A DNA stretch of 64,000 nucleotides from Hyphomicrobiales bacterium (lineage in GTDB: Bacteria > Pseudomonadota > Alphaproteobacteria > Rhizobiales > Rhizobiaceae), in contig UCMT01000043.1 of assembly GCA_900473795.1 (NCBI GenBank), positions 1-64,000 of the forward strand. Direction: 5' to 3'. A program made the position numbers and the translations under genes. The notes under the pieces are model-generated. The model was not told the DNA's origin. It saw only the letters and a list, made by a program, of their open reading frames with translations, and made no database searches. Positions within the stretch are counted from its first letter, which is position 1; the number at the start of each line of letters is the position of its first letter. Below, piece by piece: positions 14,532-38,034 of the stretch.

Positions 14532-15686
14532 TCAGGCTTTCCAGCCTGCGACGATGTCCCAGTCGACATTGATGCCGAGACCCGGAGCATCCGGGAGGGA
14601 GGCCAGCCCGTTCTTGATCGCCACGCCGCCGGTAAAGGGGTTTTTGTCGCTGATGGCGACGAAAGAAAGATGGCCCTCGTCTACGGGGAAGACAGTCTTG
14701 CATGTCGCGGCCGCGTGAAAGACGGCCGTGTCCCCGAGCAGGGTATAGGGCGCCGTATCAACGGCAACGCCCACGCCGGCCGCCTCGCAGATCGAGATCA
14801 CCTTGCGGGCTTCAAAGAACCCACCGAGGCGGTTCAATTTGCAGACGATACGATCGCAGGCCTCAGCCTGCACGATCTGAATCATGGCTTCAGCCGACCA
14901 AACTGATTCATCAAGGATGACTGGCACGCCGGAAACCTTCCTGACATGAGCGGCTCCCGAAATATCGTCGTACCCAAGCGGTTGCTCCATCGAGAGATTG
15001 CGAAATTTGCTGAGACCTCTCAAGATCGAGATCGTCATGCCCGCATTCCACCATCCCTGGTTCGCATCAGCATCGATCAGGATATGATCAGGAACGGCCT
15101 CAAGGACCGCAGCGAGTTTGTCTGCTTCGGCCAGCAGGTTTTTGATGGTCCAGCCTGCACTGTACAGTCGGTCGCCGACCTTGACCTTGATCGCCTGAAA
15201 CCCCTCGTCAACCGCCTTAAGGCAGTCACGTACCGCAAGTTCGGGCGTGTCCTGATAGGTACAGAACATCAACGGTATATCGGACGGATTCCCGCCCCCG
15301 AGCAACTTATAGACAGGCAGGCTGACCTCTTTGCCAAGCGCGTCCCACAACGCAATGTCGACGCCCGACCGCGCACTCCGCGCGCCGGGAGACCCGCCCC
15401 CATAACATTTGAGCATTCTGTCGTGGCAAAAAGCGATGTTCGCGCCATCGATACCACGCAGCGCGTCGTTGTACAGAGCGATGACGCTGGCGATCTGCTC
15501 CGGCGTCTCGTTCAGGTACCACAGCTGAGTGTTGACTTCACCGACGCCGTAAACCCCGGACTCGAGTGTGACCTTGACAAGAAAATTGATCGGTGTGGTC
15601 GGCCACGGCGACGTGGCCGAGGACCAGGTTTCCTTGATGGCGACAGTCGGCATCCGCCAGGTTTCAACAGATTTTATGGCAGTCAT
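14532..15686 (-). CDS. Enolase-superfamily (mandelate racemase/muconate lactonizing enzyme) protein
   Basis: A 384-residue enzyme with capping domain and modified TIM barrel. Catalytic features are visible: K167-V-K169, metal ligands D207 (in DADAN), E234 (MEQP) and D259/E260 (ILDES), and a second-strand Lys K283 in KLNRLGG. Two opposed lysines suggest a racemase/epimerase rather than a dehydratase. It differs clearly from the two HpbD copies, so it probably acts on another substrate; an amino-acid or betaine epimerase is a guess from context. The start at 15686 lacks a strong ribosome-binding site. Confidence 0.8.
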   Translation of the reverse strand: MTAIKSVETWRMPTVAIKETWSSATSPWPTTPINFLVKVTLESGVYGVGEVNTQLWYLNETPEQIASVIALYNDALRGIDGANIAFCHDRMLKCYGGGSPGARSARSGVDIALWDALGKEVSLPVYKLLGGGNPSDIPLMFCTYQDTPELAVRDCLKAVDEGFQAIKVKVGDRLYSAGWTIKNLLAEADKLAAVLEAVPDHILIDADANQGWWNAGMTISILRGLSKFRNLSMEQPLGYDDISGAAHVRKVSGVPVILDESVWSAEAMIQIVQAEACDRIVCKLNRLGGFFEARKVISICEAAGVGVAVDTAPYTLLGDTAVFHAAATCKTVFPVDEGHLSFVAISDKNPFTGGVAIKNGLASLPDAPGLGINVDWDIVAGWKA

Positions 15687-16236
15687 ACACTGGACCTTTT
15701 CGTTAGATGGGAAGCGTTAAGGGTGTAACAATGGTTTGAGGCAGCTCCCTCACGGGCGCCGGCTGTCCCAATCTCGATAGTGCCAAATGCGATCTGTATG
15801 GGCATTGGCCTCTTAGGCTACAACCGCGACGCATCAACGTTTAAGGCATCATTTGGGGAAGAGCTTTGCCAGCCACTCGTGACCAGCAACTCACCCTTTC
15901 AGCTTTTGCCCTCATAGATTGGCCCTCGCGGGACCTCGCCGAAGCGTTCCTACGCAATCCGGGCCTGGTTTCCCAGTGATCTCAACGTCGAAGTCATCAT
16001 ACGGTCACTTGCTCTAGCCTAAGGTAAAACCTGATGGTTTCAGTAGTTCGACACCCGAACGCAGGCGACCGGACTTCCGGATGGCGCGTCTTAGCGGCCC
16101 GGCGCGTAGCGTCACATCGGTTGCGGGGAGTTGCTCTTGCGGTTGAAAGGGCGCCCCCAAAAAAAACGAGAACAGCTTATGAGGCCGCCATCCATATGCT
16201 GACCGCGCTCGCAATTTTTGGCCTGTCGGCAGTTGA
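15687..16236. other. 550-bp gap with no recognisable gene
   Basis: No frame on either strand gives a protein I recognise, and no strong hairpin or repeat stands out. It may contain the promoter for the 14532-15686 gene and decayed sequence, like the neighbouring gaps. Confidence 0.5.
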
Positions 16237-17343
16237 TCAATTATAAGACCTAACGGGAAAGCCGAAGGACGCTTCGTTGGGAACAACCCCCAGTCCCGGC
16301 CCCCTAGGAAGACTTATGTGCCCGTGTTCAACGGACACACCATTTTCTTCGTCATAGTGCCGCTCGATATAAGGTGCAGCGATCCAAACGCCCTCGTTCA
16401 GACGCGGGCTCACGGTCGCGCCGATGTGAACACATGCAGCGGCGAGGATGTCCCCGCCCCATGCGTCATCGCAGGTATGGGGCATTGAGCGCGCCTCGCA
16501 AAGATCACGTACGGTCGCCATCGCCTGAAGACCGCCAATACGGGTAACCTTCATGCCGAAGCCATCACAGACGCCCTCGCCGATGGCACGGATCACCGTG
16601 GAAAGGTCCTCTGTGTTTTCGTCGAGATACACAGCGTGATGCAGTTGATTGCGGATGGCCTTGACCTCTTCGAACGTATTGCAAGGCTGTTCCAAAATGA
16701 ATGGGACATCGAGGCATTCGCGACTGAGACGCAGCGCGTCGCGGGTGGTCAAGGACCGGTTGGCATCGGCTGCGAGCCGAGCCCGATCTCCGACGCGCTC
16801 CCAGACCTTGCGCACCACGGCAATGTCAATCTCGACTGGCCGGCCACCGATCTTGAGCTGGAGGCGCGGATAACCTTCCGCAACACGTTCCGCCGCTATG
16901 CGCGCAGTCTCATCGGGCTCACCGATGCCCAACGCGTAGTATGATGGAACGCGTTCGGTCACAGCGCCCCCCAGAAGATCGGCGACACGCATGCTAAACT
17001 GCTTGCCCATGATGTCGTAAGCCGCCATGTCCACAGCTGCTTTTGCATACCGGTGCCCATTGAGCAGGCCATCCATTCGGCGACGAAGCGCGACCGGCTG
17101 AAGCGGGTCTGCTCCAATCAGTCCCTGTGCCATCTCATCCAGTGCGGCACGGGCACCTTTTGCATGATGCGGCTGATAGGTCGGACCTACGGGGCAGGTT
17201 TCGCCCCAACCGATGAGACCATTGTCCGTGACGATCTTAACGATCGTCGTATCGAGCGCATATACCTTGCTGCCCCCCATTGTGTAAGGGCCATTCTTGA
17301 CCGGCAGGTCATGTGCGAAGACGTGAATTTCCTTGATTTTCAT
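16237..17343 (-). CDS. hpbD: 4-hydroxyproline-betaine 2-epimerase-like enzyme (HpbD type), copy 1
   Basis: A 368-residue enolase-superfamily protein. ATG 17343 aligns exactly with the second copy at 43982. Visible catalytic residues are K164 and K265 as the acid/base pair, and metal ligands D193 (ADAN), E219 (LEQPC) and D241/E242. HpbD of marine alphaproteobacteria epimerises the alpha carbon of trans-4-hydroxy-L-proline betaine and proline betaine using two lysines, which is the pattern here. The usual KxK motif reads QLK, as in that group. It is followed after 42 bp upstream by the MDR gene in the same direction, so the two are probably cotranscribed from the promoter near 18586. Confidence 0.85.
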
Positions 17344-17385
17344 ATTCGCTCCAATCCGACGGCAATGATATTTGCGAGGCAAAGC

Positions 17386-18528
17386 TCAAGGACGTCCGGC
17401 TACAGGACCGGGAGGTGTCAAAACGAGCTTGCCGCTTATTGTCTTCGACAGAAAATCTTGCTGGGCCTGCACGATCTCACTCATTGGATAGACCTTGCCG
17501 ATGTGCGGACGTATCTCCCCACGTTCGACATAGGAAACAAGATTTTCGAACACCTCGTCTTCCTGGAAGGTGCAGCCAAAAAAGGACAAATCTTTCAGAT
17601 AAAGCGTGCGAACGTCGAGTTCGACGATCGGCCCGGCAATGGCGCCAGCAACCGCGTAGCGGCCACCACGCTTGAGGACGTCGAGCAGTTCCGGAAATGC
17701 TGGCCCGGCGGCGACGTCAAGGACGACATCAACCGAGTCTATGCCGACATGCTGAAAAAGGCGCGCATCTCGCGCCACGACTTCGTCGGCGCCAAGTTCG
17801 CGCACCTGCTGCGCCTTGTCTTTTCCCGATATGGCAATGACCTTGGCGCCGCGGCGTTTTGCGAGTTGGACAGCAGCAGATCCGACACCACCAGAGGCCC
17901 CGGTGATCAGAACAGTTTCACCGGTTTTTACTTTCGCGCGATGCAGCATGCCTTCGGCGGTTGAATACGCGCAAGGGACCGTCGCCAACTCAACGTCGCT
18001 CCAGTCGCAATCGACCTTGAACGTCTCACGGGACGGCGCTTTCGAGAACTGTGCGAAGGCGCCGTCGCATTCCGAGCCGAATGTCCAGCATTCGTAAGGG
18101 CGGTAATCCACATAGGTGCGCAACAGGTTGCGCACGATCACCCGTTCACCGATCCGGCTCGGATCCACTCCGTCTCCGACGGCGACGATGTAGCCGCAAC
18201 AATCAGCCCCTTGGATACGAGGAAATGACAACGCTTCACCGGTCCAACTCGCGTCGTCGTCCTGGGTTGTTTCGAAACCCGATGTGCCTCCGTCAGAGGT
18301 TCCGCTTCGCACGCCCTTCGAGTACCAGCCAATGCGGGTATTGATGTCCGTGTTGTTGATGGCTGCGGCAGCAACCTTGATGAGAACTTCTCCCTTCGCC
18401 GGCTTGGGAACCGGGAGGTCGTCCCTGAACTCCAGTTTTTCAAAACCTCCGTGCCCGACCAACACGACACCGGACATTGTCTTGGGGATGCTCATGGAAG
18501 CTGCAAGGTTAGAAACGGGGTTTGTCAT
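17386..18528 (-). CDS. MDR-family zinc-type alcohol dehydrogenase/quinone oxidoreductase-like protein
   Basis: A 380-residue medium-chain dehydrogenase. It has an N-terminal GroES-like domain (PAKGEVLIKVAAAAINNTDIN, GADCCGYIVAVGDGV) and a Rossmann domain with ITGASGGVGSAAVQLAKRRGA. It lacks the obvious zinc cysteine cluster of FdhA and resembles the quinone reductase branch. The substrate is unknown. It leads the transcription unit that includes hpbD copy 1, and its promoter carries a TGTAGAC direct repeat. A decayed close relative lies at 30340-30674 beside a GntR gene, suggesting the gene once existed in both arms of the locus. Confidence 0.8.
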   Translation of the reverse strand: MTNPVSNLAASMSIPKTMSGVVLVGHGGFEKLEFRDDLPVPKPAKGEVLIKVAAAAINNTDINTRIGWYSKGVRSGTSDGGTSGFETTQDDDASWTGEALSFPRIQGADCCGYIVAVGDGVDPSRIGERVIVRNLLRTYVDYRPYECWTFGSECDGAFAQFSKAPSRETFKVDCDWSDVELATVPCAYSTAEGMLHRAKVKTGETVLITGASGGVGSAAVQLAKRRGAKVIAISGKDKAQQVRELGADEVVARDARLFQHVGIDSVDVVLDVAAGPAFPELLDVLKRGGRYAVAGAIAGPIVELDVRTLYLKDLSFFGCTFQEDEVFENLVSYVERGEIRPHIGKVYPMSEIVQAQQDFLSKTISGKLVLTPPGPVAGRP

Positions 18529-18585
18529 GGTTCAAGCTCCATCGATATCGCATTTGTTACCGCACCTAAATCGTCGGCCGAAATA

Positions 18586-18604
18586 GTCTACACAATGTCT
18601 ACAA
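18586..18604 (-). promoter_or_regulatory. TGTAGAC direct-repeat operator candidate (site A)
   Basis: The minus strand reads TTGTAGACATTGTGTAGAC, two TGTAGAC copies with an 11-bp period, 58 bp upstream of the MDR start. The same arrangement occurs upstream of the ProV-type operon (36336) and mttB (42133). TTGTAGACA resembles FadR/GntR half-palindromes (TTGT-N2-ACAA). Confidence 0.6.
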
Positions 18605-18661
18605 CATATCTATTCATTGTCGCAAGCGGCCCACCGCCCCAGTTTCGGTATGGAAGACGCC

Positions 18662-18890
18662 TAGGCCCGAAATGTTGCTGCAGGTTTCCCGAGGAGGCTG
18701 CGATCGACTTCGATGCCAAGACCCGGCCCACTCGGGGCAGCGCCTCGGCCCTTGGTTTGGCGTGGCTGGTATCCGGCGATATGTTCGTTGGTCCAGTCGT
18801 TGAAAAGGACGTATGCATGATCACGGAAATCTTCATGTGGTGCTCGCTATTGAGGGTGGTCTGTCCGTAACCGAGGTGAGCTTTGCAACC
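18662..18890 (-). pseudogene. C-terminal remnant of an enolase-superfamily enzyme
   Basis: The minus strand contains the in-frame tail LGYGQTTLNSEHHEDF... followed by DHAYVLFNDWTNEHIAGY and SGPGLGIEVDRSLLGKPAA, ending in TFRA and a stop near 18663. The GPGLGIEVD motif is the typical C terminus of mandelate racemase-like proteins. Nothing of the catalytic barrel is left upstream, and the LysR gene starts at 18987. It is distinct in sequence from the three intact or HpbD-type relatives in the window, so it represents another lost enzyme. Confidence 0.75.
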
Positions 18891-18986
18891 TCGGCAGGGC
18901 AACTACGCGGCTTATTTCCCACGATGCAACTGTTGACACAAACGAGTTTTTAGGAGTTCTAGGCCCAGAAAAACTGAGGCTCAGCC

Positions 18987-19865
18987 ATGGCTATTAACCC
19001 GCCCTATGAACGCTTTCCGTCGCTCAATGCTCTTCGAGCGTTCGAGGCCTCCGCACGTTTGGGCGGGTTTGCCCAAGCGGCACAGGAGTTATCCGTCACC
19101 CCCGGGGCGGTGGCAGCTCAGGTCAAGCTTCTGGAAGCGGAGTATGGTAGCGCCCTGTTCGAACGACACGCGAGAGGCGTGAGACTTACGCCACTCGGTC
19201 ACTCTGTACGGAAAGACTTCATCCGGGCTTTCGACGTTCTGGGGGAAGCGGTCCGGAACCTTCGCAGAATGTCGAAACCGTCAAACGTACACATCGTTAC
19301 GTCTCCGGCACTGGCGCAACTGTGGCTCGCGCCAAGGGTGATAAAGCTGCGCGAGGTGTTTCAAGACATCGATCTTTCCGTAACGGCGTTGGAGGAGCCA
19401 CCTCACCTGAAGCGCGGTCCGTTCGACATCTGCCTTTTCTACTCGGAGGGCTCTCAATCTCATCACATCCGCCTGGCGGACGAATACATAACGCCAGTCT
19501 GCGCTCCCGCTCTGGCAAACCGCATCCGCCATCCGAGGGACCTAGCCGAGGTCACATGCATAGGCGATGTGGTATGGGAGGACTGGAAGGTCTGGGGTCG
19601 TGTTACCGGATGGGGCGACAAGTTCACTTTAGGTGCGGGACCGCGCTTTTCCCTGTACGCGGTTGCGGCGCAGGAGGCCTTGCTGGGACTGGGCGTTATA
19701 ATGGGCCGTCGATCACTCGTGCAGCCATATCTGGAAAGCGGTGCTCTTGTGGCCCCCTTCGAGTGGGTACCGCTCGGCCTCACGATCGACGCGTGGACGC
19801 TTCCAGAAAGCCGAACGAGTGTCGAGGTGAACAAAGTGTTGGAAGCAATATTGGGGTTCGTCTGA
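18987..19865 (+). CDS. LysR-family transcriptional regulator (GcvA-like)
   Basis: A 292-residue LysR protein. The helix-turn-helix covers about residues 10-65 (PSLNALRAFEASARLGGFAQAAQELSVTPGAVAAQVKLLE), followed by a periplasmic-binding-like effector domain. The pattern with WExWxxV segments in the effector domain is that of the GcvA group. It is divergent from the MDR-hpbD unit, with a decayed gene between, so it may regulate either that unit or a lost neighbour. The 3' end is 54 bp from the IS3 element end. Confidence 0.88.
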   Translation: MAINPPYERFPSLNALRAFEASARLGGFAQAAQELSVTPGAVAAQVKLLEAEYGSALFERHARGVRLTPLGHSVRKDFIRAFDVLGEAVRNLRRMSKPSNVHIVTSPALAQLWLAPRVIKLREVFQDIDLSVTALEEPPHLKRGPFDICLFYSEGSQSHHIRLADEYITPVCAPALANRIRHPRDLAEVTCIGDVVWEDWKVWGRVTGWGDKFTLGAGPRFSLYAVAAQEALLGLGVIMGRRSLVQPYLESGALVAPFEWVPLGLTIDAWTLPESRTSVEVNKVLEAILGFV

Positions 19866-19974
19866 GTGTGACCTTGCCCCGTTGAGATAATCAATTTTGA
19901 AGTAAGCTCTGGCCATTGTTGAAGTGCCCCCCGAATTTGGGCCAGCGGGAGCTGGAATTTTCCGGGGTTAAGGC

Positions 19975-20151
19975 TCAGTTCGGCGGGGGTGCCGATAAGC
20001 CGTTCATCAGCGAAATCGGCACCTTGTTGCCGATCGCGCTGTGTGGCCGGAACTCGTTATAGTCTCTACGCCAATCCTCCATCTTCGCCCGCGCGTCGTC
20101 AAGGCTCATGAACCAATGAGCGTTCAGGCACTCGGCGCGGAACTTGCCGTT
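19975..20151 (-). pseudogene. 3' fragment of IS3-family transposase orfB
   Basis: The minus strand reads NGKFRAECLNAHWF, SLDDARAKMEDWRRDYNEF and RPHSAIGNKVPISLMNGLSA, then a stop at 19977. This is the C-terminal part of an IS3 integrase-type transposase. It continues the orfB fragment ending at 21511 (PTDNSYIESF) once the intervening element is removed. Confidence 0.88.
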
Positions 20152-20224
20152 GATGGGGAAGACGGCCCCGCGCCGAACCGATTGGCCGTATGATAGCGCG
20201 CCCAGTTAAACAGGAGCCACGAAG

Positions 20225-21253
20225 ATGATCGCCAGCACGATAGGCCTTGATCTGGCCAAGCATAACTTTCACGTCCATGCTGTGGATGCGGATGGTCTAG
20301 TGATTAAGACCGCGACGCTCCGACGAAGCGAGATGATCAAATTCTTCACGACTGCAAGACCATGCCTTGTTGGTGTGGAAGCTTGCGCCACGGCGCATTA
20401 TTGGGCCCGTGAACTGATGAAGCTCGGCCACGAGGTTCGATTGATACCGCCTTCGTACGTAAAGCCGTTTGTGCGGCGTGGTGCGAAGAATGACGCTGCA
20501 GACGCTGCAGCTATCTGTGAAGCTGTCCAGCGACCCGACATGCGCTTCGTTCCGATAAAGTCCGAGGCCAACCAGAGCTTTCTGATGCTACATCGGGCTC
20601 GAGGTTTGCTGGTACGGCAACGGACCATGACAGTATGTGCGATCCGCGCTCATCTCGCCGAATTCGGAATCATATTCGGTCAAGGTCGACAACGCATCGA
20701 GACCATAATGCCGATGATAGATGGTATTGCGGCCTCGTTGCCAGAATATGCTCGGTTTGCTTTGACCGGTCTGATCAACTCTGTTGGTGAGCTCAACAAG
20801 CAGATTGACGGAATTGAGACGAAGCTGGCGGAGATCGGTCGTTCAGATCCAGTCTCAAGTGTGCTGTCATCGATTCCAGGGGTCGGCCCCATAACATCCA
20901 CAGCCATTGCCGCGACTATTCCGGACGCGAGAATGTTCCGTTCCGGCCGAGAGTTTGCAGCCTGACTGGGTCTGACCCCGCGACAAAGCTCCAGTGGCGG
21001 CACCACTCGATTGGGAGGGATCACGAAACAGGGAGACGCGTATCTGCGTCATCTTCTGGTGATCGGCGCCAGGAATATAGTTCGATACCCGAAAGCTCGA
21101 GCAAAGCTCGGAGGAGCTTGGATCGACGCCCTATTACAGCGACGACGTCCCATGATCGTGGCGGTCGCCGTGGCTAACAAGCTTGCCAGGATCATTTGGG
21201 CGATGATGACGAGTGGAGAGATGTTCAGGGAAGCGGACATCAAGACAGCGTAG
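20225..21253 (+). pseudogene. IS110/IS1111 transposase with in-frame TGA
   Basis: The first part (20225-20965) begins TIGLDLAKHNFHVHAVDADG, the DEDD RuvC-like N terminus of IS110 transposases, with KNDAADAAAI and SIPGVGPITS also present. After REFAA the frame hits TGA at 20963-20965 and then continues in the same frame as LGLTPRQSSSGGTTRLGGI to 21253. Homologues read W-L-G-L-T-P-R-Q here, so TGG has become TGA. The C-terminal part contains the conserved catalytic-serine region of the family. Total would be 342 residues, the normal length. It is probably dead unless the stop is read through. Confidence 0.9.
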
Positions 21254-21510
21254 CAAGGGAAACGAGTTATCCACGGTGTAAGGTGCAGAAGCAGTAGATG
21301 GTCATCCAGCGGAGCTGGGGATCGAGCAAGCCCGGAGAGTTTTAGGCGCAGCAGTGAAGCGCGACCCGTTGATGAGGCCTCGATCCGCGAACTCCATCAG
21401 GGCCAGCGACCATGATCTCGGTCGCACACGAAGGCCGAATACATGAACGCACCCGACTGATGACCAAAATTTGCAGAAAGCCTCTTGCGCCCGCGGGGCC
21501 GTCTATACAT
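21254..21510 (+). ncRNA. Candidate bridge/seek guide RNA of the IS1111-type element
   Basis: IS1111-group elements encode a guide RNA in the noncoding region after the transposase gene. Here that region carries CCGTTGATG (21366-21374), identical to the left insertion junction at 20147-20155. It also carries ATACATGAA (21439-21447), identical to the right junction at 21505-21513. Such matches are what guide loops complementary to target and donor ends would produce. RNA ends and structure were not computed. Confidence 0.4.
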
Positions 21511-22170
21511 GAAGCTTTCGATGTAGCTGTTGTCGGTGGGTTTTCCGGGCCGGGAGAAGTCAAGCACGACACCCTTGTGGTAGGCCCACAGGTCGAGGTC
21601 ACGGGAGATGAATTCGCTGCCATTGTCGACGCGGATTGCTGCCGGATAACCGATCTGCCGGCACACCCGCTCAAGCGTCTGAACCACGTCCTCGCCCCGG
21701 TAGCTGAAGCGGGCATCAACTGCCGGCGAGAAGCGCGAGAAGGTATCGACGACTGTCAGCACCCTGATCTTGCGGCCCGTGGCCAACTGGTCGTGGACAA
21801 AGTCCATTGCCCAGACATGGTTGGAATGGGTTGCTTCCGTGCGGTCGGCCCGCAGCTTCGCCTTGACCCGACGCTTCGGGACCTTATTGCGGAGCTGGAG
21901 GTCCATCTCCTTGTAAAGGCGATAGATTCGCTTCGGATTAACCGGCCATCCGTCACGCTTGAGCAGGACGTGCACACGTCGATAGCCATAGCGCACCCGT
22001 GTCTGGCAAATGTCCTTGATCCTCAGCTTCAATTCGGCCTGCTCGCCGCGCCTGGACTTGTACACGTAAAGCGACCGATCGATCTTCAACACCGAACACG
22101 CGCGCCGGATCGAGACCTTCCAGTCTGCCTTGATCGTGTCGACAAGCTTGCGATTGCGGGCAGGCCTCAT
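21511..22170 (-). pseudogene. 5' fragment of IS3-family transposase orfB
   Basis: From ATG 22170 (overlapping the orfA stop) the minus strand encodes RNRKLVDTIKADWKVSIRRA, then the DDE integrase core with MDFVHDQ, IRVDNGSEFIS and the catalytic Glu in SYIESF. The frame leaves the homology exactly where the IS1111-type element begins at 21510. The missing tail lies at 19975-20151. Confidence 0.9.
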
Positions 22171-22433
22171 AGCTTTTTTGACAGAACATCCTGGAGCAGG
22201 GCCTTGTCCAACGAGAGGTCCGCGACAATCCGCTTCAGCTTGGTATTCTCCTCCTCGAGTTGCCGCAGCCGCTTCATCTCCGAGGGCATCAGGCCGGCGT
22301 ATTTTTTGCGCCAGTTGTAAAAAGTCGCGTCCGAAATCCCGGCCTTGCGGCACACCTCGCCGACCGGTGTGGCGTCCGCTGCCTGCTTCAGCACGAACGC
22401 GATCTGCGCCTCCGAAAACTTCGATGCCTTCAT
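22167..22433 (-). CDS. IS3-family transposase orfA (helix-turn-helix)
   Basis: An 88-residue protein starting MKASKFSEAQIAFVLKQAAD with the HTH_Tnp_1 motif (VCRKAGISDATFYNWRKKYAG). A C-terminal leucine zipper (RLRQLEEENTKLKRIVADLSLD) is the part that normally mediates OrfAB assembly. ATG 22433 is the start conserved in the family. It overlaps orfB by the ATGA at 22167-22170, where programmed frameshifting or reinitiation would make the fusion transposase. Confidence 0.92.
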   Translation of the reverse strand: MKASKFSEAQIAFVLKQAADATPVGEVCRKAGISDATFYNWRKKYAGLMPSEMKRLRQLEEENTKLKRIVADLSLDKALLQDVLSKKL

Positions 22434-22571
22434 GGAATTCTCCTCAGTGTCCCCACAGGGATCATAAGTGGAAAATTCCAGTTCCAAATGGCCTAATTTG
22501 ACGGGGGCACGTCAGGCAGCATACCGGAGAGCCAAACATCTCTTGCCCTTGAGCGCGCCAGGCCAGTTGAT

Positions 22572-22600
22572 AAAAAAGCCCGGCACCAAAGGTGCCGGGC
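22572..22600 (-). terminator. Rho-independent terminator of the Rieske-demethylase operon
   Basis: GCCCGGCACC (22578-22587) and GGTGCCGGGC (22591-22600) form a perfect 10-bp stem with a three-base loop. On the minus strand it is followed directly by six T. It lies downstream of the minus-strand operon that ends at 22858. The 257 bp between stem and stop hold no recognisable gene. Confidence 0.85.
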
Positions 22601-22857
22601 AGTAAGCAGGGGGTTGGCAATCCCTGCGGGGAAACGAAGTCTTGCGCGTGCCAATCTCATCGGAAGGAACGTCGCCATTGGCGCGGAAGGTGCTGCCGCG
22701 GATCGAATAGGCAACTGTGCCCGCGATCTCCATGCGAAAATCGTAGACACTGACGAGGTAACGCGGCAGGCAACGGGCGCGCGCCAAGAAACCGCCGAAA
22801 GCGAAGGTCAAAAAATCAGACGACGAACTAGCTCGCTGACTTGCGGGGATGGACCTC

Positions 22858-24204
22858 TTACTCATCACCTGCCTTCCACTCGCGGAATGCCAGGCTAGCG
22901 GTTGCGCCGATTGCGGTTAATGGCTGAGGTGGCAACGCCTTCGGAGCTTCAAAACTCTTATATATCCTCGTGAGTTCGGAGCTGTGTCCCAACATCAATT
23001 CAGCGGCCGCAATGCCTGAAGCCGTTGCTTTCGTAGCACCAACCCCGTTGCATCCACATGCGGCAAACACGCCGCGTTCGATTTCCCCGAATGCCGGGAC
23101 TGAGTTCCAGGTGACGGCCATTGCACCGGCCCACCGGTACTCCATACCGACCTCGTGAAGACCCGGAAACCGCGCTTTGAACTTGCGATCGTGTTGAACG
23201 CCGGCCCTCCTGAGCGATCCTTCACTGGCAACTGGGCTCGCGTTGTAGGTGTAGCGGGACCGGATAAGGATACGATCGCCTCGCTGTCCAGGGACGCGGC
23301 GAACCGTGGTGCCCATCGGAAGGGCTGGCGTTGCTGCCCATTTTCTATCGCCGGACAGGCGGCTGGGGTCGAACTCCTGTGTCATCGAGGCGTAGGTGAA
23401 TATATGCAGGAGACGGCCTTTGAAGAAGCCGAAACTCTCTGCATGTCCGTTGTTGGCAAGAATGATCCTGTCGGTGCTGATCGAGCCCCGAGAGGTCTTC
23501 ACGAGCCATCCTTGTCCGGTGCTCTGGAACGAGATGGCCGGCGTTCTTTCAAACACCGTGACAGGCTGACGAAGGCAGTCCGCGAGGCCTCGAATGTAGG
23601 CTGCTGGCTGCACGATGATGGTACCGGGGGTGAACAGAGCAGATGTATAGCAACGGGTGCCTGTTACCGCGGCGATCTCTTGTGCATTCAGAAGCTGATG
23701 CTTTTCGCCGAGCTTGCCCAGTTGTTCGGCATAGGTGACGAGGTGGTGGTCCCCCTCGTCGCTAATGGCGACGCTGTATCGGCCACATGGATCGAAAATC
23801 TCGCGGCCCCATCCTTCTTCCGCGGCAATTGAGCTGGCCAAGGCGATGGCGCTGCGACTGACAACGATGGCCTGCTTGCTTTTGCTCGCGGAGTCGCCGC
23901 CGTAGTCGTCGGAAGAGACCTCATGAGGCAAGTCGATGATGAAACCGGAGTTGCGTCCGGCGGGCCCTTCGCCGATGACACCGGCTTCCAGAACTGCGAC
24001 GCGCAACGCGGGATCGAGCTGAGAGATCCGCCGCGCTGCGGACAACCCGGCAAAGCCTCCTCCAATCACGACGACATCGGCCGTGAGAGACCCCTCAAGT
24101 TGGGGTCTCTCGGTGCGCGGAGGAAGCATTGCGACCCAGCCCGAAATGCCCGTATTCTTGGGGAGTTTCGATGCCGCGAATACCTTCTTTGAATTCGTGC
24201 TCAC
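22858..24204 (-). CDS. FAD-dependent D-amino acid dehydrogenase/oxidase-like protein, copy 1
   Basis: A 448-residue DAO-family flavoprotein. The FAD dinucleotide fold is VVVIGGGFAGLSAARRI near residue 45, and EGPAGRNSGFIIDLPHE is the next conserved block. The C-terminal block WNSVPAFGEIERGVFAACGCNGVG completes the fold. It is paralogous over its full length with the 448-residue protein at 39533-40879. In hydroxyproline catabolism an enzyme of this family oxidises cis-4-hydroxy-D-proline to the pyrroline carboxylate; that role is inferred from the adjacent DapA-like gene, which it overlaps by 4 bp. It is the last gene before the terminator. Confidence 0.85.
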   Translation of the reverse strand: MSTNSKKVFAASKLPKNTGISGWVAMLPPRTERPQLEGSLTADVVVIGGGFAGLSAARRISQLDPALRVAVLEAGVIGEGPAGRNSGFIIDLPHEVSSDDYGGDSASKSKQAIVVSRSAIALASSIAAEEGWGREIFDPCGRYSVAISDEGDHHLVTYAEQLGKLGEKHQLLNAQEIAAVTGTRCYTSALFTPGTIIVQPAAYIRGLADCLRQPVTVFERTPAISFQSTGQGWLVKTSRGSISTDRIILANNGHAESFGFFKGRLLHIFTYASMTQEFDPSRLSGDRKWAATPALPMGTTVRRVPGQRGDRILIRSRYTYNASPVASEGSLRRAGVQHDRKFKARFPGLHEVGMEYRWAGAMAVTWNSVPAFGEIERGVFAACGCNGVGATKATASGIAAAELMLGHSSELTRIYKSFEAPKALPPQPLTAIGATASLAFREWKAGDE

Positions 24205-25094
24205 GACGCCTGTGATTCCCGCTCGGCAAGCTCTCCGAGCGCGGCCTTCAAAGCTTCAATTCGATCACTAGACAAGCCTCTCAGAGGCTTGCGGGGGCTG
24301 CCGGCCCCGTAACCGGTCAGTTCGGCTCCCGCATAGACGGACTGCACATAGTCTCCTTCCCACAGAAGCGACATGACAGGCTCGAGTGCAGACCAGATTT
24401 CACGTGCCTCCTCCCATTTCTGGGCCGACGCTGCCGCCACCAAGGCAAGGCAGGTGCGCGGAGCAAAGTTCGCGCCACCCCAGATGAGACCGCTGCATCC
24501 GGCATAGAGTGCATAGGGTACGAGCGGGTCAGCGCCGTTCATGACCGGAAGGCCCGTGCGGATAAGTGACGCCTGCTTTCCAAGATCGCCGCTGCTGTCC
24601 TTTACGGCGCAGAAACCAGGAATGTTGCAAAGCTCTCTTAGAAGCGACGGAGTGACAGCGACGCCAACAGCCTGCGGCACGTTATAGCCGATCACGGGCA
24701 GGCCCGCTTTGGCGACTTCCGCATAAAAATCGACGATGCCCTGATCGTCCGTCGGCCCCTCGAAAAAGGGCGGCAACACCATTACACCATCAGCGCCGCA
24801 ATCGGCGGCGTGACGTGTGCGCTCGACGACGTCGTCCGAGAGAAGGGCAGAAGTCTGCACTATGACCTTCGCGCGCCCATTGATGATCTTCGCACCGCGC
24901 TGCACGAGTTGCTTGGACTCGTCCTTTGAGAGATAGACATGCATTCCAGTGCCGGAGCTCAGGACAAAGCCGGGGACGCCAAGTGCCAAATAACGTTCGA
25001 TGTTCTCTTCCAACCGGTCGAAGTTCATGCGCCCTTGCGCGTCGAACGGCGTGGTGATTGCGAGGTTGAGGCCAGGAAAAGGGAAGTTCGTCAT
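24201..25094 (-). CDS. DapA/dihydrodipicolinate synthase-family lyase, probable pyrroline-4-hydroxy-2-carboxylate deaminase, copy 1
   Basis: A 297-residue class I aldolase-type protein with the Schiff-base lysine K165 in FCAVKDSSGD and the conserved Tyr137 in YNVP. The substrate pocket motif reads SSGTGMH where DapA has GTTGE, indicating a non-DapA substrate. In 4-hydroxyproline degradation a family member (LhpC/HypD type) deaminates delta1-pyrroline-4-hydroxy-2-carboxylate to 2-oxoglutarate semialdehyde. Overlap with the FAD enzyme supports this pairing. Function is inferred; family certain. Confidence 0.82.
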   Translation of the reverse strand: MTNFPFPGLNLAITTPFDAQGRMNFDRLEENIERYLALGVPGFVLSSGTGMHVYLSKDESKQLVQRGAKIINGRAKVIVQTSALLSDDVVERTRHAADCGADGVMVLPPFFEGPTDDQGIVDFYAEVAKAGLPVIGYNVPQAVGVAVTPSLLRELCNIPGFCAVKDSSGDLGKQASLIRTGLPVMNGADPLVPYALYAGCSGLIWGGANFAPRTCLALVAAASAQKWEEAREIWSALEPVMSLLWEGDYVQSVYAGAELTGYGAGSPRKPLRGLSSDRIEALKAALGELAERESQAS

Positions 25095-25230
25095 CTTAAT
25101 GGTCCGCCGGTCCGGCGTCGGAAAGATCCGGCCAGATTGTCTTGTGTGAGTTTATTGACTTGCCTGGCGACGCCAGCTTCGCAGCAATCTGCTTTATTCG
25201 ACTTCATCAAAGGCCGGCAGCGACGCCGCG

Positions 25231-26292
25231 CTATACCTCGACGCTTATTCGGCCCATCGGGTTGGAGCAGCAAGCGAGGATATAGCCGTCGGCGATGTCC
25301 TCGTCGGTTATTCCGCCATTGTGCACCATATGCACCTGTCCTTCGTTTTTGCGGATCTTGCAGGTTCCGCAGATCCCCATAGAACAACCCGATGGGATCA
25401 TCAGCCCCGCGGCCTTCGCAGCGGCCAGGATCGTGACCGTCTGGGAACACTTAGCGGAGATGCCGGAGAGGACAAATTCGATCTCAGCCTCGCTTTGTTC
25501 ATTCGGCAGCACGTCCTCGGGAATGTTCTCGGCGTCCTGAGGCTCCGCCTGGAAGCTTTCCTGATGATAGCGGCTCATGTCGTAGCCGAGAGCGGCAAGC
25601 GCCTCGCGTACGGCCCGCATGAAGGGTTCAGGCCCGCAGCAGAAGACCTCGCGCTCTAGGTAGTCCTGGGCCATCAGACCGAGCATGATCTGGTTGAACA
25701 TCCCCCGGTAGCCGGTCCACGGCCGGAAGGGATCGGCCTCTTCAACCACCCATTTCAGATCGATGCCGACGATGCGCGAGGCCATGAGCTCCATCCTGTC
25801 ACGCAGGATGATCTCGGAGGGACGGCGGGCGCAGTTAATGAAGACGATATCCGGTTCACGCCCGGAATCGTAAAGCCAGGTGGTCATCGCCACCATCGGT
25901 GTGATGCCGGAACCGGCCGAGATGAATAGATACTTCTCGGCCGGGTGATGGACGATCGAGAATTTCCCAGCCGGCCCAATAGCCCTGATCCGCATGCCCT
26001 TGCGTAGGTTGTCGAGCATCCACCTGGTTCCGATCGAGCCCTCCTGCGCCTTGACCGTAATCGTCAAAGCCGTCGGCCGCGAGGGCGAGGACGAGATCGT
26101 ATAGGTGCGATAAAGTGGGCCGCCAGGAACAGGCAGTTCCAACGTGACGAACTGCCCCGGCTCATGATCGAACAACGCGCCGGACGGGCTCTGAAAGCTG
26201 AAGGTTACGACGTTCGGCGCTTCCGGCGTACGGGTGACGCATTCGAGCTCTTCAGCGTCCGTCCAGAAGGAGAGATTCTTGAATGCGCTCAT
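25231..26292 (-). CDS. Ferredoxin-NAD(P) reductase component of the Rieske demethylase (GbcB type)
   Basis: A 353-residue electron-transfer protein. It has an FAD-binding barrel with RTYTISSSPS, an NAD-binding domain (ISAGSGITPMVA, FCCGPEPFM) and a C-terminal plant-type [2Fe-2S] domain with C-x4-C-x2-C in SGCSMGICGTC and a last Cys in ILACCS. ATG 26292 gives MSAFKNLSFW and lies 5 bp after the Rieske gene stop. It passes electrons from NAD(P)H to the neighbouring oxygenase, as GbcB does for GbcA. Confidence 0.92.
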   Translation of the reverse strand: MSAFKNLSFWTDAEELECVTRTPEAPNVVTFSFQSPSGALFDHEPGQFVTLELPVPGGPLYRTYTISSSPSRPTALTITVKAQEGSIGTRWMLDNLRKGMRIRAIGPAGKFSIVHHPAEKYLFISAGSGITPMVAMTTWLYDSGREPDIVFINCARRPSEIILRDRMELMASRIVGIDLKWVVEEADPFRPWTGYRGMFNQIMLGLMAQDYLEREVFCCGPEPFMRAVREALAALGYDMSRYHQESFQAEPQDAENIPEDVLPNEQSEAEIEFVLSGISAKCSQTVTILAAAKAAGLMIPSGCSMGICGTCKIRKNEGQVHMVHNGGITDEDIADGYILACCSNPMGRISVEV

Positions 26293-26296
26293 CCCC

Positions 26297-27694
<1,398 letters not shown>

Positions 27695-37132: not shown

Positions 37133-38034
37133 AATTCGAGGGAATTTACACCCCCGTCATCACACCGCATCACGACGATGGAACAATCGATCGCGACAGC
37201 TTTGCCCGCATGATTGAGTATCTGATCGGGTCGGGCGTACACGGCATCATCAATGGCGGATCCACCGGTGAATACTACGCGCAGTCGATGGATGAACGCG
37301 TGGAATTGGCAACGCTCGCCAAAGAGATCATCGGGGACCGCGCCTCCCTCATCATCGGAACCGGCGCAATCCAGCTGCAGGACTCCATTCGGATAGCCGA
37401 AACCGCAGCCAAGATTGGCGCTTCGGCCATTCTTGTCGGGTCGCCGCCCTACTCGGTGCCGACGGAGCGCGAAAACGCTTTGAACGCCTTGGCGATCGAC
37501 CGAGCGGCGGACCTCCCGATCATGCTCTATAACTACCCGGGTCGAATGGGCATCAACATGGGGGAGGAGTTTCTCGACCGAGTCGGCCGCAGCCGCAATT
37601 TCTGCGCCATCAAAGAGAGCTCCGGTGACATCAACCGGGTGCACCTGCTCGCCCGCGACTATCCCCACATCCAGATGTCGTGTGGCATGGACGACCAAGC
37701 CTTGGAGTTTTTCGCATGGGGAGCGCGCAGCTGGGTATGCGGCGGCTCCAACTTCCTGCCGACCGAACACATCGCCCTCTATAGGGCATGCGCGGTGGAA
37801 GGGAATTTCGGCAAGGGGCGCCGGATCATGTCAGCGATGATGCCGTTGATGCGCGTGCTGGAGCAGGGCGGAAAATTCATCCAGTGCATCAAATACGGTT
37901 GCGAGATGACAGGCTTTCGCGCTGGCCCTCCGCGCGCGCCACTAAAGGGATTGAACAAGGACGACATCCGTCAACTGGAACAGGTCGTGCGGGTGCTTAA
38001 GTGCACGATTGCAGAAATTGAAGCGGAGGCATGA
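37129..38034 (+). CDS. DapA/dihydrodipicolinate synthase-family lyase, copy 2
   Basis: A 301-residue protein with Schiff-base lysine K162 in FCAIKESSGD, Tyr134 in YNYP, and pocket motif NGGSTGEYY. It is only moderately similar to the copy at 24201. By analogy with hydroxyproline catabolism it may convert pyrroline-4-hydroxy-2-carboxylate to 2-oxoglutarate semialdehyde, the substrate expected for the next gene's aldehyde dehydrogenase. It overlaps both neighbours by 4 bp, giving strong operon evidence. Function inferred. Confidence 0.83.
   Translation: MKFEGIYTPVITPHHDDGTIDRDSFARMIEYLIGSGVHGIINGGSTGEYYAQSMDERVELATLAKEIIGDRASLIIGTGAIQLQDSIRIAETAAKIGASAILVGSPPYSVPTERENALNALAIDRAADLPIMLYNYPGRMGINMGEEFLDRVGRSRNFCAIKESSGDINRVHLLARDYPHIQMSCGMDDQALEFFAWGARSWVCGGSNFLPTEHIALYRACAVEGNFGKGRRIMSAMMPLMRVLEQGGKFIQCIKYGCEMTGFRAGPPRAPLKGLNKDDIRQLEQVVRVLKCTIAEIEAEA

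What the first reader, a model, noticed from the sequence alone, without database searches (positions are those of the whole stretch)
21254..21510. IS1111-type right end carries 9-nt matches to both of its insertion junctions
CCGTTGATG (21366-21374) equals the left junction (20147-20155), and ATACATGAA (21439-21447) equals the right junction (21505-21513). Each spans the target/element boundary around a shared TGA. By simple counting, a given 9-mer match in 257 nt is expected only about once in a thousand, so two at the junctions is striking. They fit guide loops of a bridge/seek RNA encoded here.
Basis: partly seen in the sequence, partly recalled or inferred. Interest (0 to 1): 0.74.

Follow-up and report, generated by a model that had tools for sequence, protein, structure and literature searches.

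The report
Four-guide RNA of an IS1111 transposon
The right end of this mobile element appears to encode a small guide RNA with four short guides, two matching the gene it has jumped into and two matching its own ends; the kind of system is known, but the natural matching seen across relatives is good evidence for how it works.

Summary
The two 9-mers are real and not chance: none of 4000 shuffles of the region held both. The element (20151-21509) is an IS1111-type IS110-family element inserted in an IS3-family transposase gene. Its 3' non-coding end encodes a bridge/seek RNA (21297-21462): a covariance model built without the window or its target group finds it at E=1.9e-27. The missed guides are the right target guide GAGAGTTTTA (21335-21344) and the right donor guide CCATCA (21394-21399). 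Across relatives with other targets the target guides follow the targets (LTG 137 of 165 letters against 49 shuffled; loci kept out of the model 120 of 155 against 47.5). The left donor guide follows the element's right end (259 of 265 against 215). RNA-guided IS1111 elements are known, so this is a new member; added are statistical support for a donor guide in the IS1111 group and a target at the catalytic-Glu codon of IS3 transposases. This copy has a premature stop in its transposase and is probably immobile alone.

The parts
20151..21509 (+). IS1111-type element by the 7-bp (TGATGGG) / 3-bp (ACA) end convention; TGA core at 20151-20153 repeated at 21510-21512
   Evidence: empty site in L013
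20160..20172 (+). left subterminal inverted repeat AGACGGCCCCGCG
21492..21504 (-). right subterminal inverted repeat (CGCGGGGCCGTCT on the + strand)
20225..21253 (+). DEDD transposase gene of the IS110 family, broken by one in-frame stop at 20963-20965
   Evidence: intact copies exist in relatives (annotated)
21297..21462 (+). bridge/seek RNA (extent of the covariance-model match; true ends unknown)
   Evidence: E=1.9e-27, 105.5 bits; structure counts
21320..21385 (+). target-binding loop: stem P1 21320-21326 with 21379-21385, inner CC/GG pairs 21331-21332 with 21376-21377, hairpin P2 21346-21349 with 21359-21362
21335..21344 (+). right target guide GAGAGTTTTA; can pair with all 10 letters of TGAAGCTTTC (21510-21519), three by G.U
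   Evidence: pairing read from the sequence
21366..21372 (+). left target guide CCGT + core TGA, identical to 20147-20153
21387..21450 (+). donor-binding loop: weak outer stem 21387-21389 with 21448-21450, GGCC stem 21401-21404 with 21433-21436, hairpin 21406-21410 with 21421-21425
21394..21399 (+). right donor guide CCATCA, complement of TGATGG at the left end (20151-20156)
21439..21446 (+). left donor guide ATACA + core TGA, identical to 21505-21512
20147..20150 (+). left half of the target (CCGT)
21510..21519 (+). core and right half of the target (TGAAGCTTTC); on the minus strand the codons Glu-Ser-Phe of the IS3 transposase
21510..22487 (-). interrupted IS3-family transposase genes (rve and HTH parts); the remaining piece lies upstream of 20150

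Best explanation
The 3' non-coding end of this IS1111-type element encodes a bridge RNA (long seekRNA) with two loops. The 5' loop pairs with the target: a right target guide (GAGAGUUUUA) with the top strand of TGAAGCTTTC, and a left target guide (CCGUUGA) with the bottom strand of CCGTTGA. The 3' loop pairs with the element's own joined ends: a right donor guide (CCAUCA) with TGATGG of the left end, and a left donor guide (AUACAUGA) with the bottom strand of ATACATGA of the right end. The transposase would use the RNA to bring the circular element and the target together and recombine at the shared TGA. Shown here: sequence, conserved structure, covariation of guides with targets and of the left donor guide with the right end, target identity. 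Inferred: transcription, binding by the transposase, pairing in the cell, mechanism. This copy's transposase has a premature stop and a DNA search found no other copy in the genome, so it probably cannot move unaided.
For: Model R1, from 33 relatives with other targets, hits the window at E=1.9e-27 and has a match in 45 of 47 further loci, none of them model rows. Structure: 95.6% of 1317 cells paired; 102 cells with two-sided changes against 24.9 shuffled (0 of 500 as high); 14 of 25 pairs with two-sided changes against 9.6 (1 of 500 as high); slid structures reach at most 8 pairs and 38% paired. An open scan of all alignment columns against all target positions puts the left target guide first. 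Own against shuffled: LTG 137 of 165 against 48.9; RTG 208 of 248 against 124.1; LDG 259 of 265 against 214.9; 0 of 10000 each. Sister pairs: LTG 14 better, 2 tied, 0 worse of 16; RTG 12, 3, 0 of 15; LDG 22, 2, 0 of 24. Parsimony: the right-end word changes at least 12 times, LDG 10 times, the pair together 12 times. Loci kept out of the model: LTG 120 of 155 against 47.5, RTG 289 of 360 against 158.3, LDG 207 of 215 against 169.7; with loci 80% or more like a model row removed, LTG 90 of 115 against 37.2, RTG 209 of 264 against 115.6. Guide order (top-strand match 5' of bottom-strand match) is the published IS1111 order (PMC11187229).
Against: No expression or binding data. A lone fold of 21316-21455 is not unusually stable (z -1.44; 17 of 200 shuffles as stable). 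The donor loop's outer and GGCC stems have no two-sided changes. The right donor guide hardly varies: its third element letter pairs in 39 of 53 rows (25.4 shuffled, max 35), its fourth in only 8 of 53. The left target guide is short (LT -6 matches in 5 of 33), and in the window itself only 4 target letters plus the core match. The third core letter often differs between ends and guides. Published work found the short RNA with target matches enough for ISEc11 transposition (PMC11187229). In 45 kept-out loci six RTG scores are 4 or less of 8; three of these (L060, L131, L107) show right ends that my pattern seems to have misplaced, the other three (L134, L096, L111) are unexplained. Many LDG sister pairs share one deep split.
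Confidence: 0.92

Rival explanations
1. Target-only seekRNA: the 5' loop guides target choice, and the 3' half is scaffold or a processing signal, not a donor guide.
For: In ISEc11 an 82-nt RNA with the target matches supported transposition, and the role of the long RNA was left open (PMC11187229). Here the donor loop's outer stems show no two-sided changes.
Against: The left donor guide equals the element's right-end word in 50 of 53 rows and changes at least 10 times on the tree, each change fitting an end change; in kept-out loci it matches 207 of 215 letters against 169.7, and in the AGA-core loci its core letters read AGA.
Confidence: 0.06
2. DNA-level repeats: copies of end sequences inside the element are transposase-binding sites, with no guide RNA.
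For: LDG is a direct copy of the right end; a protein could bind both. This is inference.
Against: Does not explain guides that follow foreign target DNA on opposite strands, nor the compensatory changes in the RNA structure.
Confidence: 0.015
3. Chance matches in a G+C-rich region.
For: CCGTTGATG occurs twice more in the 64 kb.
Against: 0 of 4000 shuffles hold both; guides at the same positions match the own targets of relatives with other targets.
Confidence: 0.005

Closest known systems
IS1111-family seekRNA elements (ISEc11, ISPa11, ISKpn4; PMC11187229)
   Same: DEDD transposase with GL-P----SG motif, subterminal inverted repeats, 7/3-bp ends, downstream non-coding region, top-strand match 5' of bottom-strand match, no target duplication
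   Different: Different target and sequence; a donor loop is supported here by covariation, whereas the sections of that paper I read describe target matches and leave the long RNA's role open
Bridge RNA of IS621 (IS110 group; PMC11208160, PMC11208158) and ISCro4 (solved chain 9t56)
   Same: Two loops, four guides, core shared by target and donor (IS621)
   Different: RNA at the right end instead of the left; guide order reversed in each loop; core TG(A)
IS1111 bridge RNAs predicted in PMC11208160 (three members of each group inspected by hand)
   Same: Bridge RNA in the right end with target and donor matches
   Different: Here a quantified covariation over a clade instead of manual inspection
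ISEc21 (IS110 group), which targets the second Asp codon of IS3-family DDE transposases (PMC11187229)
   Same: An RNA-guided element aimed at catalytic codons of IS3 transposases
   Different: This one is IS1111-type and aims at the Glu of D-35-E instead

Membership tests
IS1111 family | DEDD transposase of the IS110 superfamily | tested here: met
   PF01548 1e-19 and PF02371 on the window's first piece, PF02371 on the second; NF033542 5.4e-106 for intact relative L008
IS1111 family | GL-P----S(T)G motif in the C-terminal domain | tested here: met
   GLTPRQSSSG read from the sequence after the stop; GLTPRQNSSG and GLTPKQNSTG in relatives. Motif as given in PMC11187229
IS1111 family | Subterminal inverted repeats of about 11-13 bp | tested here: met
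   13 bp perfect
IS1111 family | 7-bp left and 3-bp right extensions outside the repeats | tested here: met
   TGATGGG and ACA by alignment with the GTGGACGG-type relatives; in the window the outermost two repeat positions do not pair
IS1111 family | Long non-coding region downstream of the transposase gene | tested here: met
   256 nt from stop codon to core
IS1111 family | No target-site duplication | tested here: met
   Uninterrupted IS3 copy L013; joined flanks align over 641 columns with one gap; the TGA is shared by end and target
[quoted passage not shown]
bridge RNA | Donor guides matching the element's ends, covarying with them | tested here: met
   Left donor guide clearly; right donor guide only at one informative letter
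bridge RNA | Conserved two-loop secondary structure | tested here: met
   donor-loop outer stems conserved but without two-sided changes; lone fold not unusually stable
seekRNA / bridge RNA | RNA transcribed and bound by the transposase | not testable with these tools
   needs expression and co-purification
seekRNA / bridge RNA | Circular intermediate and guided insertion | not testable with these tools
   needs transposition assays

The most novel reading that the evidence does not exclude
IS1111-group RNAs are true four-guide bridge RNAs: the 3' half of the long seekRNA is a donor loop kept in step with the element's ends by selection, so the IS1111 and IS110 groups share one bispecific mechanism with the guide order reversed. 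In addition, this lineage is a specialised parasite of IS3 transposons: its guides read the catalytic Glu-Ser-Phe/Asn-Gly codons, and at two synonymous positions they carry G, which can pair with either codon spelling.
Probability: 0.6. Interest if true: 0.6.

Novelty: new member of a known kind. Interest (0 to 1): 0.45.

Why it matters
One founding report found target guides only and left the role of the long RNA and the recognition of the ends open (PMC11187229); the other inferred donor matches in IS1111 by inspecting a few elements (PMC11208160). Natural covariation in this clade says that the RNA does read an end, and gives matched guide, target and end sets for tests. The clade also offers many naturally retargeted examples (33 non-redundant elements with other targets, and 55 further hits, partly related), some with changed cores, and a case of one mobile element aiming at the catalytic codons of another.

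Tried and rejected
Rfam: nothing matched within the element at E up to 1 in the scan of 20000-22600; the three weak hits lie at 22563-22600. A single-sequence fold was not decisive. The idea that the 9-mers are extended guides across the boundary was rejected, because loop letters beyond TGA do not follow the junctions in relatives. The first end-parsing misplaced ends in a few loci: one search changed six, of which L032 was set back; L031 and L070 were set by hand. In some searches, 15 of 90 loci could not be parsed and were left out; the model later matched in 13 of these 15 (not in L036, L037), and five of them (L050, L051, L060, L072, L082) went into. The one search set was a selection: of the loci I gave only some (59 sources in all, repeats of one place partly left out). 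L038 and L045 have damaged transposases that distort the tree. The wobble idea (guide G at two synonymous positions, 32 of 32 and 33 of 33 read loci) rests on one clade and also fits plain matching to the commoner codon; at a third synonymous position the guide is C in 30 of 33, which is not the permissive letter. So it stays a suggestion. L069 carries the same target guides on a diverged element; I did not resolve whether by descent or convergence. Literature searches listed no paper whose title or abstract start reports this IS3 Glu-codon target or donor-guide covariation in IS1111; the library holds no preprints. Papers: PMC11187229 abstract, section 5 in four parts, section 14 and passages; PMC11208160 section 12 and passages; PMC11208158 listing and one passage from its reference list.

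Full report
OBSERVATION. CCGTTGATG stands at 20147-20155 and 21366-21374, and ATACATGAA at 21439-21447 and 21505-21513. In 4000 dinucleotide-preserving shuffles of 21254-21490 the first appeared in 6, the second in none, both in none.

THE ELEMENT. A DEDD transposase gene (20225-21253; Pfam PF01548 and PF02371) is broken by one in-frame stop at 20963-20965. It is flanked by a perfect 13-bp subterminal inverted repeat (20160-20172 and 21492-21504). By alignment with relatives the ends are the standard IS1111 ones, TGATGGG on the left and ACA on the right, giving an element of 20151-21509. It sits in an IS3-family transposase gene. An uninterrupted IS3 copy (L013) gives the empty site; the window's joined flanks align to it over 641 columns at 88%. 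A DNA search of the own genome found no second copy of this element.

THE TARGET. Eight plasmid records hold full-length relatives at 81-90% identity. The seven that I fetched sit at the same motif, CCRT|TGAARCTYTC, on IS3-like flanks; in one of them (L009) the right core reads TAA. Of 75 loci with parsed ends, 33 were assigned to this motif by their right flank. In 23 of the 33 the flank translates to an exact D-35-E spacing whose Glu lies in the Glu-Ser-Phe just before the split, the catalytic pair of IS3 transposases (that D35E is the catalytic pair is recalled; the pattern passes over stop codons). In 10 of 33 it does not, several with short, broken or unlike flanks. So the element cuts in at the codons for the catalytic Glu-Ser-Phe/Asn-Gly.

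RELATIVES AND GUIDES. Ninety loci were examined (window, 9 plasmid loci, 80 genome loci kept out of 438 found); ends were parsed in 75 and not in 15. At 96% identity these gave 53 non-redundant 3' ends, aligned as A2. Twenty of the 53 have the IS3 target and 33 have other targets. An open scan of every alignment column against every target position, on the 33, gave one outstanding identity diagonal: target letters -5 to -1 against columns 86-90, matched in 25, 27, 28, 21 and 27 of 33 rows against 8-12 after shuffling. It also gave a complementary diagonal for core and right target at columns 63-59. Against the element's ends, on all 53 rows, the right-end letters matched columns 173-177, with the variable letters at -4 and -2 matching in 50 and 52 rows against 24 and 35.

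TESTS. With refined ends, own against shuffled pairs: left target guide 137 of 165 letters against 48.9; right target guide 208 of 248 against 124.1 (best of three registers, for the shuffles too); left donor guide 259 of 265 against 214.9; no shuffle of 10000 reached the observed value. To allow for relatedness, nearest pairs with differing targets were compared own against swapped: LTG 14 better, 2 tied, 0 worse of 16; RTG 12, 3, 0 of 15; LDG 22, 2, 0 of 24, where many of the LDG pairs share one deep split. On a transposase tree the right-end word changes at least 12 times, the donor guide 10 times, and the two together 12 times, so every guide change can coincide with an end change; three rows mismatch, and two rows with damaged transposases distort the tree. 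The right donor guide is weakly tested: its third element letter pairs in 39 of 53 rows against 25.4 shuffled (max 35), its fourth in 8 of 53.

LOCI KEPT OUT OF THE MODEL. A covariance model R1 was built from the 33 other-target rows only. It hits the window at 21297-21462, E=1.9e-27, and has a match in 45 of 47 further loci, none of them model rows (none in L036 and L037). It hits 105 of 297 genomes of the window's family, the own genome included, at E up to 1e-8. From 61 model matches in 59 chosen sources, after removing the two IS3-type copies in L005 and L007 and four repeats, 55 remained, 31 with a parsed left and 45 with a parsed right flank. LTG matched 120 of 155 letters against 47.5, RTG 289 of 360 against 158.3, no shuffle of 10000 as high; LDG 207 of 215 against 169.7 in 43. 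Some of these are close to model rows: 3 of 55 at 90% or more, 17 at 80% or more. With the 17 removed LTG still matches 90 of 115 against 37.2 and RTG 209 of 264 against 115.6. Several have another core (AGA, GGA, TGT), and in the AGA group the core letters of LTG and LDG have changed with it. A second such RNA in the window's own genome (contig C49) has the right guide AGTGGGATG and the flank CGTCCCACT. Six RTG scores are 4 or less of 8; three of them (L060, L131, L107) have right ends that my pattern seems to have misplaced.

STRUCTURE. The structure counted has 25 pairs: 95.6% of 1317 cells paired, 14 pairs with two-sided changes against 9.6 shuffled (1 of 500 as high) and 102 such cells against 24.9 (0 of 500); slid versions fall to 38% paired and at most 8 pairs. 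The structure came from the same alignment, which favours it against the slid versions. The target loop is enclosed by P1 (all 7 pairs with two-sided changes) and contains hairpin P2. The donor loop contains the GGCC stem and a hairpin; its outer and GGCC stems are conserved without two-sided changes. The window's RNA folded alone is not unusually stable (z -1.44).

READING. In the window the guides are RTG GAGAGTTTTA (21335-21344), LTG CCGTTGA (21366-21372), RDG CCATCA (21394-21399) and LDG ATACATGA (21439-21446). RTG can pair with all ten letters of TGAAGCTTTC, three by G.U. Within the IS3-target group the left guide has G at its synonymous position in 32 of 32 loci read (target G in 22, A in 10), and the right guide has G at another in 33 of 33 (target C in 23, T in 10); at a third it has C in 30 and T in 3 of 33. 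G pairs with both spellings, which may let one guide hit many IS3 genes; this rests on one clade and is a suggestion.

KNOWN AND NEW. IS1111 seekRNAs with two target guides in this order, and IS110/IS1111 bridge RNAs with donor guides, are published (PMC11187229, PMC11208160). ISEc21 of the IS110 group aims at another catalytic codon of IS3 transposases. The element is therefore a new member of a known kind. Not met in my searches is a quantified covariation of an IS1111 donor guide with the element's end, which bears on the role of the long seekRNA that PMC11187229 leaves open. That paper's finding that the short RNA suffices for ISEc11 stands against a strict need for the donor loop.

Noticed in passing
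L069 (Nitrobacter sp. Nb-311A): Element with a 56%-identical transposase and the other inverted-repeat type (GTGGACGG) carries the same IS3 target guides as the window's clade: deep descent or convergence of guides.
   Followed up: partly
L125, G000 contig C49 56687-56848: A second, different IS1111 bridge RNA in the window's own genome, with right core CG(T) and a right guide that can pair with its own flank; its left end was not found.
   Followed up: partly
L099, L109, L144, L156, L160: Relatives whose left core is AGA, GGA or TGT instead of TGA; in L099, L109 and L144 both the LTG and LDG core letters read AGA.
   Followed up: partly
L085, L088, L090, L093, L063, L075: A group whose right core reads TGG while the left reads TGA, with LDG ending TGG; suggests that only two core letters must be shared.
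   Followed up: no
L005 3879-4037 (-), L007 1007-1165 (+): Another IS1111 RNA beside the window-type element in two rhizobial plasmids, with right flank TGCCACTGA in both.
   Followed up: partly
window 14532-26331: Neighbouring genes tested are metabolic or regulatory (enolase-superfamily, zinc dehydrogenase, LysR regulator, FAD oxidoreductase, DHDPS family); the IS3 plus IS1111 nest lies between the LysR gene and the FAD oxidoreductase gene.
   Followed up: no
window 37843-37851 and 15267-15275: Other copies of CCGTTGATG; both lie inside metabolic genes (DHDPS family; enolase superfamily) and look like chance.
   Followed up: partly
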